Assembly (NCBI GenBank): GCA_003117195.1
Contig: BDSI01000010.1
Location: forward strand, 1,009,875 to 1,073,874
Direction of reading: 5' to 3'
Length of the DNA: 64,000 bases
Source of the DNA: Eudorina sp. 2006-703-Eu-15
Lineage: Eukaryota > Chlorophyta > Chlorophyceae > Chlamydomonadales > Volvocaceae
Made by a program: the position numbers and the translations under genes. Within the stretch, counting starts at the first letter, position 1. The number at the start of each line of letters is the position of its first letter. Under the pieces are notes generated by a model, which was not told where the DNA came from, made no database searches, and saw nothing but the letters and a program-made list of their open reading frames with translations. This document shows positions 8,090-64,000 of the stretch, in pieces.

Positions 8090-11000
8090 ATGGCTTTCCG
8101 GCCGGACGTCTTTGTACTTTCGTGTTTGGTTGCGGCGACCTTTGCCAGCTTCCAGTTGGCGACAAGCATTACAATTGGACAGCCTCACTACATCATGCCG
8201 GCTGGTTGCCCGACACAAGGTTTGTAAATGATTTGAATCTATTTTTCAAGAAGCTGTGATACTGTCAAACGGTGCCGTCAGACTGCATTTTTCGTGAAAC
8301 CGTCATTCTTTCCAACCGACGTCGTCACGAAATGTCTCGTAACCTGTACACATTCACAATCTGCGTCAATCACCTAGGTTACGGTTACACAAGCATTTTG
8401 GTAAAACTGTCTGCATGAATTCCGACAACGCACAGGTTACCTCTCGGTAATGCCATGCGGCTCTGCCGCAACACTATCGATCGCCGGAAGTGTGTCGACT
8501 TCATCACAAACGTCGTTACAGTGGATTATTACTGACGACAAGTCTACAAATGGCGACCCATCTGGGCCTTTGCTCATAAGCTCGGTACGTGCGTGCCACC
8601 TGGCTCCATCGCTTGTCGGTTGGGTTAGTTCGTTACCTACGTTATCAAAAGTCAATTACGTATAAGCGGGCCGTCGCTAGGCTGCTGTATCGGCCGGTGC
8701 ATGCATGCGGTGCCCGCGTTGGTAGTCAGGCTGGCTGGATGAGCGCGGCGTATTCCGTCATCTCCGTCGATGCCGCATTCTGCGTTACCGGTGCGGAGTG
8801 AGTGGGTGCGTACCTGCGTGACTGGGTACGTACCTGCGGACATCATAATCAGCAAGAATAGGATGTGCTTGCATTGCACTACGTGCACTGCTTCCATGGG
8901 ATGGGCGGAGGCGAGCCTGCTGGGTAGTCTGGGCGTTCATGGCAATTTGTATATATGCACGCAGGTGCGCGCGACTGATTAGACTGGTGCACTAGATATC
9001 GGTATGTAGGTGACTTACACAGCAGACAGAACACAAATAGAAACGCGCGCGGTATGTTTGTCGAAAGAAGGTATTATTATTAGGATGTTACAGCGGACCC
9101 CGCGGGTCATCGGTGACAGCCCCGGTGACAGCCGAGGCTTCCTCACCATACACTGCCTAAATGAACTAACGCCACCATGGCGCTCCGGACAGGTTCCCAA
9201 GTGCACCGAAACACTCCCCGGGCCCACACTACCAGGGAACCACCCCGTTCCTGAGAACCAACCATGGCAAGGGATAAAGCCCGCTCAGGGGGAGTTAGCC
9301 ACCATGGCGCCCCTATTAGCGAACCACCACCCCCACCAAGGCGGGGTCACTTCTCCAGCGGTGGCCCGTAGTCTTGGAAGGCCACGGGGGCTCGCGAGTC
9401 ACCATTCAGTACGGTCCCACCGGGCCGAAAAAACTGCCCACACCTAGCGATAGCTCCACTGGGCGTCAGTGCCCTGACCACCCGCGGTCTATTACGACAG
9501 AGTACCTACAGGGCTTAAGAATCCTGGCCTGACGGAACCGGGCCTCGGCACACAAGACGACCGTCCTGCACTTTCAGGATCGGGTGTGTAGTCCCCACCG
9601 CTGACCTACCACCCTTTCACTGGGACTCCCAGCTCAGCGAAGTCGTAGAGCCGGCTCCAAAAGTCTGCCACTGCCCGCCGGGCGGCTAGCCCTTCAGCGT
9701 CCCCTAAGGACCCCGGGATCCCGCCCGCGTTCCTGGACCTGTCGGCCCTCAGGGCTCGCCGGCCCGTTTCCATGGCACTGGTTGCCGCCAAGACGACAAC
9801 GTCCCAGACACACTGTTGCACACCCACGGGGGGCGTTGCGAGCCACACCTGCTGCCTTTGAAGGCTCACCCCTAGCCTTGCCTCGATCTGTGCGACAACC
9901 GCTTGTGCCACCCCACAGCCCCAAAAATGGTGTTGCCTGGGTGTTGGCCGTATCGCCCCGGCGCCGGGGTACGTCCCGCATCCACAAGGGGCCACCGCCG
10001 CCCCCCTCATGTGGGAGTTACCAAGCATTGGGATGCCATCAACCGCCAGTCGCCAATACGCCTCCTTATTGGAATTTTCCCACTTGGCCTCCGTCCACAT
10101 CCGCTGCATGTTCTCTATTACCTTGGAAACCATCCTCGACACTTCTGGCGCAGTATCCTCTACCCCAAGCGCTTCGCAAACAAAGCGTGTGTGCGCCGCA
10201 CGCCTCGCCTCCCCCAGGCTTTGCAGCTGCAGTGTCGTGCCATACCGCACGGTGTACTCGTGGAGTGCCACCTTGAGGCCGTTTTGCAGCCTCCACCCCA
10301 TGCGCCTCACCAGCATTTCCGTGACTTCCTCTCTCCCTGGGGTGGTCGCCTCGGTGGGCCCCAGGGACCCCTCGGCGGCTTCCCACCACCCTGGTGGGAT
10401 GTCTTGTCGGAGCGCTTCTAGGGCCGCCTCACACTCCCTCCACCGGTCCCACTCCTGCCACCCGTCGGCTCCTACCCCGGGTATATATGTTATTTCCGTA
10501 CGCTTCTACCTCGGGTCGATCTTCGATGCATGTGTCTATGACTAATCTAATTAAACTCAACGTCCCGGCGGTGTGCATGCTTCATTCGTTCCCATGCGCT
10601 TGCCGGCTTAGCTTGCGTGCTTGCTCGATTTACTCAATTTGCCCGAGCAGGTTGCCCGCTCGACCTGCGGTGGCAACGTGCTCGCTGCAAACCGTCGATG
10701 CACGTCAAGCTACGTCGGCATGACGAATAACACGGGCCTGGTGAAATGGAAACTCGTCCGTACTAATGCTGTCAATGTTTACCAGATAAAGGTCGAGGTA
10801 TGTACGTAGGCGCACGTGCGTGATCCAATTGCTTGGGGATCGGATGGAGAGATAATACCCAGACAGCGAGATTGCTTGTACGCGCATATTATGTCTCAAC
10901 TGGTTAGGGGTACGTATGTGCACGCATGTGCACGTGGATGGACCAAAGTATCCAATCCATTCACTTAGGAGTTACCCCAGCGCGACGGACTCCTATCTCG

Positions 11001-11181
11001 GACGTTGACTATGCAACCGGGTGGGCCTTACGTACGTACATGACATGCAGGGTCGCAGTAACTGTTCCAACGAGTACCTGAGCGCCTCGTGCGGCAGTGG
11101 TGCGGCGGGCGTCCAGCTCTTCACTCGCTACGGCAGTGAGGCTACACTCGTCACAAACTGGGTTCTCAAGCCAGTGAACGG
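8090..11181 (+). CDS. gene 1 exons 1-4: signal peptide and three ~50-residue trefoil-like repeats
   Basis: The start ATG 8090 begins a hydrophobic signal sequence ([10 protein letters not shown]), as in gene 4 at 62565. Three repeats of about 50 residues follow. Each opens with a Cys and a Y-L-S / V-L-A / Y-L-S type strand, has a second Cys, and closes on a Trp (Q-W-I-I-T, V-K-W-K-L, N-W-V-L). Three such repeats are the pattern of a beta-trefoil. Exon 2 is 149 bp in both gene 1 and gene 4, with the same phases. The trefoil assignment is inferred from repeat length and Trp/Cys spacing. Confidence 0.7.
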
Positions 11182-62564: not shown

Positions 62565-64000
62565 ATGGCTTACCGCCTGAATGCTTTGGCAGTCTTGCTG
62601 GCGGCGGCGTCCGTCACCCTGCAGTTGGCGACATGCAGTTCCAATGGACAGCCTTACTACATTTTGCCGGCTGGTTGCCCAACACAAGGTTAGTTAGAAA
62701 CCGCTTAAAAGCATTGAACTTGCACCATGCTAAGCGTTGCAAGTAGACTGCACCCGTGGTGCGTGAACTTGACTATAATGTCATTGTGGCGAACTTTGAA
62801 CGACGTCGACGAATAAGTAAAACATATATCTCTCAAAATGTATCTTGAATTGATGAATAAAATCAAACTTACTCATTTTTTAACCATGGCCTGAATGAAT
62901 CCCGGCAACGCGCAGGATACCTCTCGGTGACGCCATGCGGCTCTGCCGCAACACTATCCGTCGTTGGAAGTGTGTTGACTGCATCACAAGCTTTTTCACA
63001 ATGGTTAATAGTGAACTCCGGGGCTCAACATGACGACCCTATGGCGCCTGTGCTGATTTCCTCGGTACGTGCCCATGCGTGACTCAACCTACGTGGATTG
63101 TATGTAAGCACGCATGCAGCAGCACGCAGGTAGCTATATATCTAGGGCTCGTAGGGCGGCGCGGCGGATGGCCTAGCTATGGGATGGGGTGCGAGCTGTG
63201 GGCTGCGTGTTTGGTCAGGGTTCGCACGAGTATCGAATGTCATATCGATCCGTGCGCCGCATGCATACATACCGTATTAATGATCACGCATGGGTATTGC
63301 CCGCTCCGGGACTACTTATCCAGGCATGTATGTATGTAATAAATGACCATACACAGACGAACGGTCGATAAATAGTTGCGTCGGTGTCACGGCTATCACG
63401 GGATGATCTATCTACCGATCACGAGCAAGGGATGTATGGATGGATGGATAACCTATCGACGTGTGTGACGGCGGTGGCCGTGCGAGCGAAAGCAATGCGT
63501 GGTGGGGACCGACGGGCCAACAAAGACACCATGCACGCGTAACACCCGAGGGTGTGTGTGCGGAGCGTAGGGTCGTAGCTAGGGAGACCTACTGTAAGTG
63601 AGTAAACACGGATTACACGGATGTGATTGGCGTAGTGTGGTAATAATGTCCCACAACCACTACGTGTCTAGTGATGGCTCGTGCGTGTCCGACCCGTGCG
63701 AACGTTGATGCACCTGCGTGAGGCCTCGCGTCACCCAGTGCCGTGCCATGATCGGCATCGTGCGCAACATAAGATTCACAACCTCTCATGTGTGGCATCC
63801 CACGCACGGGCGTGATCAACCAATACGCATTGTCAAATAAACGAGATCTCATTACACCTTCCAGCAAAACGAAGATACTTAGGTTGGGGCCCGACCAGTC
63901 TTAAACCGTCTTGGCGTGCACGCCTGCCGTTCGCTTAGTTCGCTCGCCTTTTCGATTATATATTTCGATTTGTCTGATGGGCAGGTTGGTCGCTCGACCT
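62565..64000 (+). CDS. gene 4 (partial): paralogue of the gene 1 N-terminus
   Basis: Exon 1 (62565-62688) encodes a signal peptide (L-A-V-L-L-A-A-A-S-V) and G-Q-P-Y-Y-I-L-P-A-G-C-P-T-Q. Exon 2 (62916-63064, 149 nt) encodes [15 protein letters not shown] and ends V-L-I-S-S. Both exons match gene 1 in sequence, and exon 2 also in length; phases are the same. Exon 3 begins at 63985 (V-G-R-S-T versus V-A-R-S-T in gene 1) and is cut by the window end. The intron 63065-63984 holds nothing recognised. The rest of the gene lies outside, so its C-terminal domains are unknown. Confidence 0.85.

What the first reader, a model, noticed from the sequence alone, without database searches (positions are those of the whole stretch)
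8090..64000. Cluster of secreted multidomain genes sharing lectin and VMO-I modules with different N-terminal payloads
Gene 2 joins a bacterial-type PI-PLC X domain to a ricin-B-type trefoil and three VMO-I domains. Gene 1 has the same trefoil and VMO-I C-terminus (shared linker N-L-S-K-C-V-D) behind an unrelated, unrecognised N-terminus. Gene 4 repeats the gene 1 N-terminus. I know of no described protein with PI-PLC, ricin-B and tandem VMO-I together. Inference: a family that swaps effector domains onto a common surface- or matrix-binding tail, perhaps for cell-wall remodelling or defence.
Basis: partly seen in the sequence, partly recalled or inferred. Interest (0 to 1): 0.88.

Follow-up and report, generated by a model that had tools for sequence, protein, structure and literature searches.

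The report
Modular secreted lectin-phospholipase genes in alga
A green alga carries a small cluster of genes whose predicted secreted proteins put either a bacterial-type membrane-lipid-cutting enzyme or a large unfamiliar head on the same sugar-binding-type tail; the pieces are known, the combination was not found in the searches made here.

Summary
The genome is that of a volvocine-type green alga (166 pherophorin, 68 light-harvesting matches). Gene 2 (minus, 61136-36010) resolves into 21 exons, 1,099 residues: signal peptide, bacterial-type PI-PLC, ricin-type trefoil, three complete VMO-I domains. They form one protein: two single exons each carry the end of one VMO-I, a proline-rich linker and the start of the next. 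Each VMO-I is a six-exon cassette. Gene 1 (plus, 8090-28895, 23 exons) and gene 4 (from 62565, running past the window) carry the trefoil and one VMO-I behind a ~1,000-residue head, of which exons 5-7 match an uncharacterised bacterial family (hhalign 98.9%, E 1e-17). A second PI-PLC copy lies upstream and a decayed one downstream. Paralogue dN/dS is 0.23 and 0.29. No protein with PI-PLC, ricin and VMO-I together turned up, but PI-PLC+ricin occurs in an actinobacterial MAG, VMO-I+ricin in rotifer lectins, and a related lipase with VMO-I in rotifers. Best reading: extracellular-matrix-bound PI/GPI-cleaving enzymes plus companions on one tail. Expression and activity are untested.

The parts
8090..28895 (+). 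Gene 1: 23 exons, 1,361 aa; signal-peptide-like start, ~1,000-residue head, ricin-type trefoil, one VMO-I. Exons: 8090-8219, 8436-8584, 10651-10797, 11051-11181, 11794-12055, 12387-12651, 15284-15351, 17388-17483, 17999-18152, 18988-19136, 20000-20170, 20852-20974, 21209-21279, 21735-22084, 22374-22951, 23735-23848, 24342-24983, 25934-26064, 26477-26622, 27377-27452, 27815-27887, 28193-28220, 28864-28895
   Evidence: conservation with gene 4
11794..15351 (+). Gene 1 exons 5-7: domain of an uncharacterised bacterial family (WFTDRPYR...PNA...VEL...ASLFID)
24342..24983 (+). Gene 1 exon 17: end of the head, whole ricin-type trefoil, first strand of VMO-I
25934..28895 (+). Gene 1 six-exon VMO-I cassette with stop codon
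36010..61136 (-). Gene 2 (copy B): 21 exons, 1,099 aa. Exons: 61136-61043, 60209-60046, 59202-57865, 57563-57433, 57133-56976, 56675-56600, 55595-55523, 45087-45060, 44559-44411, 44120-43990, 43359-43217, 43068-42993, 42297-42225, 40078-40051, 39844-39702, 39365-39238, 39012-38861, 38466-38391, 37975-37903, 37093-37063, 36044-36010
61043..61136 (-). Gene 2 exon 1, hydrophobic signal-peptide-like start ([27 protein letters not shown]); counterpart in copy A at C10:1000788
58393..60209 (-). PI-PLC domain (exon 2 and first part of exon 3)
57931..58344 (-). Ricin-type (CBM13-like) trefoil, starting at NLSKCVD
44539..57909 (-). VMO-I domain 1 (end of exon 3 to start of exon 9)
44411..44559 (-). Exon 9: end of VMO-I 1, [10 protein letters not shown] linker, start of VMO-I 2
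39825..44465 (-). VMO-I domain 2 (exon 9 to start of exon 15)
39702..39844 (-). Exon 15: end of VMO-I 2, [16 protein letters not shown] linker, start of VMO-I 3
36010..39755 (-). VMO-I domain 3 and stop codon (exon 15 to exon 21)
62565..64000 (+). Gene 4, 5' part: exons 62565-62688, 62916-63064 and 63985 onward; continues to C10:1087036 (window coordinate 77162), same architecture as gene 1

Best explanation
A birth-and-death cluster of secreted multidomain genes of a volvocine green alga. The tail (CBM13-like ricin trefoil, then one or three VMO-I beta-prisms on proline-rich spacers) holds the protein on glycans of the alga's own hydroxyproline-rich extracellular matrix or another glycan surface. 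In gene 2 the head is a bacterial-type PI-PLC that cleaves phosphatidylinositol or GPI anchors at a nearby outer membrane leaflet, releasing anchored proteins or remodelling the surface; in genes 1 and 4 the head is a different, partly bacterial-family module. Shown: gene structures, domain identities, one reading frame through three VMO-I domains, retained catalytic-type residues, purifying selection between paralogues. Inferred: secretion (no signal-peptide program was run), glycan binding, catalysis, substrate, location in the matrix. Bacterial origin of the PI-PLC is suggested by its nearest hits, not tested against eukaryotes.
For: Gene model and single frame across VMO-I domains. His71, Asp72, Arg104, His116, Asp341 of gene 2 fall in columns invariant in 6 of 6 PI-PLC sequences; that these are catalytic positions is recalled. 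Of 26 PDB sequences matched 25 are named as bacterial-type PI-PLC, best 5.4e-33. VMO-I matches 1vmo over its length, 1.5e-29; the trefoil's best solved relatives are a xylanase binding domain and other CBM13-like modules, 2.1e-9. Pherophorin expansion. dN/dS 0.23 (2B/2A, 1,085 codons) and 0.29 (1/4, 1,308 codons). In the genome, VMO-I matches are 37 on C10:980905-1109877 and 2 on C645 (53 candidates scored), and the bacterial-type PI-PLC only in copies A and B, with one other PI-PLC-X gene on C13.
Against: No expression, localisation or activity data. Copy A has two changed splice acceptors and copy C has in-frame stops and no PI-PLC part, so the PI-PLC function need not be essential. The fourth catalytic-type Asp is outside the alignment to solved structures. 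PI-PLCs of this kind also occur as exported enzymes acting on other organisms' membranes. No glycan-binding residue was checked.
Confidence: 0.5

Rival explanations
1. Defence or predation: the proteins are exported against bacteria, grazers or competing algae; the tail binds foreign surface glycans and the PI-PLC or other head damages their membrane.
For: Nearest PI-PLC relatives are exported bacterial enzymes; lectin+payload layout is common in inter-organism effectors; rotifer proteins with VMO-I include SMaseD-like lipases and lectins; rapid copy turnover.
Against: dN/dS shows no sign of positive selection at gene scale (no site test was made). Bacteria mostly lack GPI anchors. Proline-rich linkers fit the alga's own matrix.
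Confidence: 0.25
2. Structural or adhesive matrix proteins: the heads are mainly scaffolds, and the proteins cross-link matrix glycans through 2-4 binding modules.
For: Two of the three intact-looking full gene structures in and beside the window (genes 1 and 4) lack a known enzyme domain; multiple binding modules with extended linkers.
Against: PI-PLC catalytic-type residues are retained and the PLC part is under constraint, dN/dS 0.26.
Confidence: 0.17
3. The cluster is an annotation artefact: separate neighbouring genes read as one.
For: No cDNA; large introns (10.4 kb between exons 7 and 8 of gene 2, holding a satellite).
Against: Linker exons join the domains in frame, the order recurs in copy A where that intron is only about 0.64 kb, and decoy chains score far lower. 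An internal start or stop between domains was not needed anywhere in the chain.
Confidence: 0.05

Closest known systems
BPBT lectins of the rotifer Brachionus calyciflorus (PMC8878817, passages seen)
   Same: Secreted; VMO-I beta-prism and ricin trefoil in one eukaryotic protein; tandem VMO-I.
   Different: There two VOMI precede a C-terminal ricin domain and there is no catalytic head; here ricin precedes one or three VMO-I, with PI-PLC or another head in front.
Rotifer GDPD-like SMaseD/PLD proteins with C-terminal VMO-I (PMC6299612, passages seen)
   Same: A phosphodiesterase lipase head on a C-terminal VMO-I; the authors suggest surface recognition.
   Different: Other lipase family (GDPD-like, not PI-PLC-X), no ricin trefoil reported in the passages seen, no tandem VMO-I with proline linkers reported there.
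Bacterial PI-PLC with ricin trefoil (L135, Streptosporangiaceae MAG)
   Same: PI-PLC-X followed by ricin-type trefoil in one ORF.
   Different: No VMO-I; bacterial; PI-PLC 33% identical over its best segment.
Deltaproteobacterial RICIN domain protein (P0001, P0002)
   Same: VMO-I and ricin-type trefoil in one long protein.
   Different: AbfB domain, no PI-PLC; VMO-I comes before the trefoil.
Diatom protein with peptidase M11 (gametolysin type) and VMO-I (P0018, Ditylum brightwellii)
   Same: Algal enzyme head with VMO-I tail.
   Different: Peptidase head, no ricin; VMO-I match only 37% identical over 18% of the query.

Membership tests
VMO-I (PF03762) | Profile match over the whole domain above the curated cut-off | tested here: met
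   Gene 2: three stretches, 330.6 bits against cut-off 25; gene 1 tail: 120.6 bits; 1vmo matched at profile positions 3-173
VMO-I (PF03762) | Three homologous sub-repeats per domain | tested here: met
   Each domain shows three G-x-W-G-D/N-W ... GA/F-x-x-R-x-E ... DDTA segments in the five-domain alignment (read by eye)
Bacterial-type PI-PLC | Sequence match to solved members | tested here: met
   25 PI-PLC sequences in PDB, best 5.4e-33; Pfam PI-PLC-X 2.5e-12
Bacterial-type PI-PLC | Catalytic His/Asp/Arg/His/Asp (positions recalled) | tested here: met
   Invariant in 6 of 6 aligned sequences; the last Asp is not covered by the PDB alignment
Bacterial-type PI-PLC | Cleaves PI or GPI anchors | not testable with these tools
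   needs enzyme assay
Ricin-type trefoil / CBM13 | Profile match above cut-off with three repeats | tested here: met
   RicinB_lectin_2 in three stretches, Ricin_B_lectin above cut-off; xylanase CBM13 structures
Ricin-type trefoil / CBM13 | Binds sugar | not testable with these tools
   no binding-site check was made
BPBT lectin (rotifer) | Two VOMI followed by a C-terminal ricin domain | tested here: not met
   Ricin lies before VMO-I in genes 1, 2 and 4
Rotifer SMaseD/PLD with VMO-I | GDPD-like catalytic domain | tested here: not met
   Pfam finds PI-PLC-X, no GDPD, at E up to 0.1
Pherophorin | DUF3707 (PF12499) domain | tested here: not met
   Not among Pfam matches of gene 2, the gene 1 tail or the gene 1/4 heads
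WFTDRPYR bacterial family (unnamed) | Profile similarity over the conserved core | tested here: met
   hhalign 98.9%, E 1e-17, gene 1 residues 204-362; single-profile search weaker: 2 of 16 listed hits at E <= 1e-3

The most novel reading that the evidence does not exclude
A bacterial PI-PLC(-ricin) gene entered a volvocine alga and was fused to a host VMO-I cassette that multiplied by block duplication of six exons, giving a matrix-tethered GPI-anchor-cleaving enzyme that sheds cell-surface proteins during colony development, hatching or sex, while the same tail was reused for an otherwise unknown ~1,000-residue head.
Probability: 0.15. Interest if true: 0.78.

Novelty: new variant of a known kind. 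Interest (0 to 1): 0.5.

Why it matters
Volvocine algae are the standard model for the origin of multicellularity, and their extracellular matrix is known mainly as pherophorins and other hydroxyproline-rich glycoproteins (passages of PMC10762512, which name neither lectins nor phospholipases). A matrix- or surface-binding PI-PLC there would add a way of shedding anchored surface proteins or remodelling membranes, testable in transformable relatives. It also shows exon-block duplication building a tandem VMO-I tail and gives a first eukaryotic setting, within these searches, for an uncharacterised bacterial exported domain.

Tried and rejected
Exon [11 protein letters not shown]... (60577-60488) was first taken as gene 2 exon 2; no phase-compatible chain exists with it and copy A does not conserve its body, so it was dropped.

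Gene 1/4 head as a diverged PI-PLC: rejected (hhalign 0.1%; whole-region alignment no better than shuffles, 792 of 1000 reach it). The short shared stretch just before the trefoil is real for gene 4 (2 of 1000 shuffles) and weak for gene 1 (35 of 1000); without its last ~20 residues nothing remains (209 of 1000).

Gene 1 exons 1-4 as a second trefoil: left open. Pairwise repeat scores 12, 64 and 453 of 1000 shuffles reach the value; hhalign against the tail trefoil 0.2%; no PDB relative.

Head of genes 1/4 against Pfam (0 families), NCBIfam (one hit E 0.27), PDB (best 0.11) and the protein collection (0 at E <= 1e-3 with the full protein): nothing apart from exons 5-7. The full-protein search could only return proteins of 0.55-1.75 times its length.

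VMO-I in viral contigs (68 pattern matches, none confirmed) and plasmids (none); the exon 5-7 family in viral contigs (2 pattern matches, none confirmed).

Species naming: the 18S search never got an answer, so only 'volvocine-type' is claimed.

Literature searches for the architecture: (open-licence PMC papers only); one search was malformed. Papers: passages seen of PMC6299612, PMC8878817, PMC10762512; all others were seen as listings only.
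Full report
What the organism is. The window is C10:1009875-1073874 of a 181 Mb assembly in 3,033 contigs. The genome has 68 chlorophyll a/b-binding matches and 166 matches to the pherophorin domain DUF3707 (335 candidates, 150 scored). Pherophorins are described as matrix building blocks of Volvocales (title in the reference list seen). I therefore read it as a volvocine-type green alga; the species was not determined.

Gene 2. A dynamic program chained exons by reading frame and splice-site score. 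It gives 21 exons on the minus strand, 61136-36010, and a protein of 1,099 residues. Pfam on the spliced protein finds PI-PLC-X (residues 67-201), ricin-type trefoil and three VOMI stretches, VOMI at 2.7e-99. Exons 9 and 15 each encode the end of one VMO-I domain, a proline-rich linker and the beginning of the next, all in one open frame. This is the point that would otherwise have needed cDNA: the VMO-I modules cannot be separate genes unless those exons are wrong. The six exons of each VMO-I have the same phases (0-2, 1-1, 2-2, 1-0, 0-1, 2-0) in all three domains and in genes 1 and 4, which points to duplication of six-exon blocks. The domains are 65-74% identical to one another within gene 2.

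Controls. The chain scores 115.3. Of 300 decoy layouts of open stretches of the same lengths in the same DNA, 76 gave a chain, mean 45.6 and maximum 77.2. 18 of 20 donors reach a score that 4.5% of GTs reach. The program picks the best site in a range, so the second figure alone overstates the case; the decoys correct for that. The weak sites are the exon 2 acceptor (AAG; CAG in copy A) and the exon 10 donor.

Genes 1 and 4. DNA comparison of gene 1 with the stretch starting at 62.4 kb shows conserved blocks at the exons and diverged introns (of 26 rows a few pair non-corresponding places and are repeats). Gene 1 has 23 exons and 1,361 residues, gene 4 has 23 exons with the same phases and 1,315 residues. 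They are 74.6% identical. Both end in a ricin-type trefoil and one VMO-I. The gene 1 exon 15 query found only these two places in the genome.

The head of genes 1 and 4. The full head found no family in Pfam, one insignificant NCBIfam match, no PDB relative and no protein at E <= 1e-3. A search with exons 5-7 alone gave 16 proteins at E <= 1, 2 of them at E <= 1e-3, best 1.9e-5. Eleven of the 16 were aligned with genes 1 and 4 and share [10 protein letters not shown] and A-S-L-F-I-D cores. A profile of twelve of the 16 matches gene 1 residues 204-362 with hhalign probability 98.9% and E 1e-17. A member, P0030, has matches on 61 plasmid records, 45 named Rhizobium, 12 Sinorhizobium, 3 Ensifer and 1 Microvirga; the annotated ones shown are hypothetical proteins. 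It has no solved relative (best E 0.49). The rest of the head is without relatives here.

The junction. Genes 1 and 2 share sequence from about 25-30 residues before NLSKCVD onward. In gene 2 this lies in the middle of the 1,338-nt exon 3, in gene 1 within exon 17. The head was thus not exchanged at an intron now visible. NLSKCVD itself is the start of the first trefoil repeat.

The cluster. Copy A of gene 2 lies at C10:1000788-979249, minus, with the same exon order including the signal-peptide exon. Over 1,085 codons it is 92.1% identical, dN/dS 0.23. In copy A the first part of exon 7 with its acceptor is missing and the exon 10 acceptor AG reads AA, so its product may differ; the value of dN/dS used the boundaries that the program chose there. 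Copy C (C10:1110404-1104945, minus) begins in the middle of the trefoil, has one VMO-I and in-frame stops: a decayed copy. Contig C645 carries counterparts of a gene 4 exon and of copy C, probably an alternative haplotype (inference). The order is A minus, gene 1 plus, gene 2 minus, gene 4 plus, C minus. Genes 2 and 4 are head to head with starts 1,429 bases apart. VMO-I matches in the genome are 37 on C10:980905-1109877 and 2 on C645 (53 candidates scored). PI-PLC-X matches are copies A and B and one other gene on C13. Weak trefoil relatives sit in a tandem array on C128.

What the domains are. PI-PLC: 25 of 26 PDB sequences matched are PI-PLC, best 5.4e-33. Gene 2 residues His71, Asp72, Arg104, His116 and Asp341 are in columns invariant in 6 of 6 sequences; their catalytic role is recalled from the Bacillus enzyme. 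VMO-I: 1vmo, 1.5e-29 over positions 3-173. Trefoil: xylanase CBM13 modules, 2.1e-9.

Is the architecture known? Of 28 proteins found with full gene 2 (8,000 candidates scored, 605-1,923 residues), 17 carry PF03762, 6 carry PF00388, none carries both; 2 carry ricin and VMO-I. VMO-I there sits with AbfB, PKD, metallophosphatase, M60 and M11 domains. A scan of prokaryote genomes found 441 relatives of the PI-PLC; 80 were kept, 32-46% identical in their best segment. In 4,645 ORFs of these 80 loci no VMO-I match and one ricin match (L135) was found, and Pfam confirms PI-PLC-X plus ricin in that one ORF. Eukaryotic coverage of these collections is limited, so absence is not proof. In print, rotifer lectins with two VOMI and a ricin domain (PMC8878817, passages) and rotifer SMaseD-like lipases with VMO-I (PMC6299612, passages) are the nearest. 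Searches listed nothing that names the triple combination.

Reading. The tail looks like a binding device and the gene 2 head like an active lipase. In an alga whose matrix is built of hydroxyproline-rich glycoproteins, with proline-rich spacers in the tail itself, a matrix-held PI/GPI-cleaving enzyme is the reading I favour (0.5). Export against other organisms is the main rival (0.25). Neither expression nor activity was tested. The variant is new as a combination; the kind, a payload on a lectin/VMO-I tail, is known.

Noticed in passing
window 50472-54413: A 446-bp satellite, 8.9 copies at 96% match, fills part of gene 2 intron 7 (10.4 kb); the same intron in copy A is about 0.64 kb.
   Followed up: partly
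window 25422-25749: (GT)163 microsatellite inside gene 1 intron 17.
   Followed up: no
window 30931-35033, minus: Two long open frames between the convergent ends of genes 1 and 2, with a weak RNase H match (E 0.0069); looks like a non-LTR retroelement (inference).
   Followed up: partly
window 1347-4796, plus: A 1,149-codon open frame with GIY-YIG-like and reverse-transcriptase-like motifs by eye (recalled resemblance to Penelope-like elements with an N-terminal GIY-YIG); no Pfam match.
   Followed up: no
window 13901-13972, minus: Rfam tRNA match above cut-off (36.7 bits) in gene 1 intron 6, but ARAGORN reports no tRNA; perhaps a tRNA-derived repeat.
   Followed up: partly
G000:C128:320678-337926: Three evenly spaced weak relatives of the trefoil (28% identity, about 8.4 kb apart), another tandem family.
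   Followed up: no
window 61136 and 62565: Genes 2 and 4 start head to head, 1,429 bases apart; a shared promoter region is possible.
   Followed up: no
plasmid records: The uncharacterised family of gene 1 exons 5-7 is frequent on Rhizobium/Sinorhizobium plasmids (61 records, 60 of them from Rhizobium, Sinorhizobium or Ensifer).
   Followed up: partly
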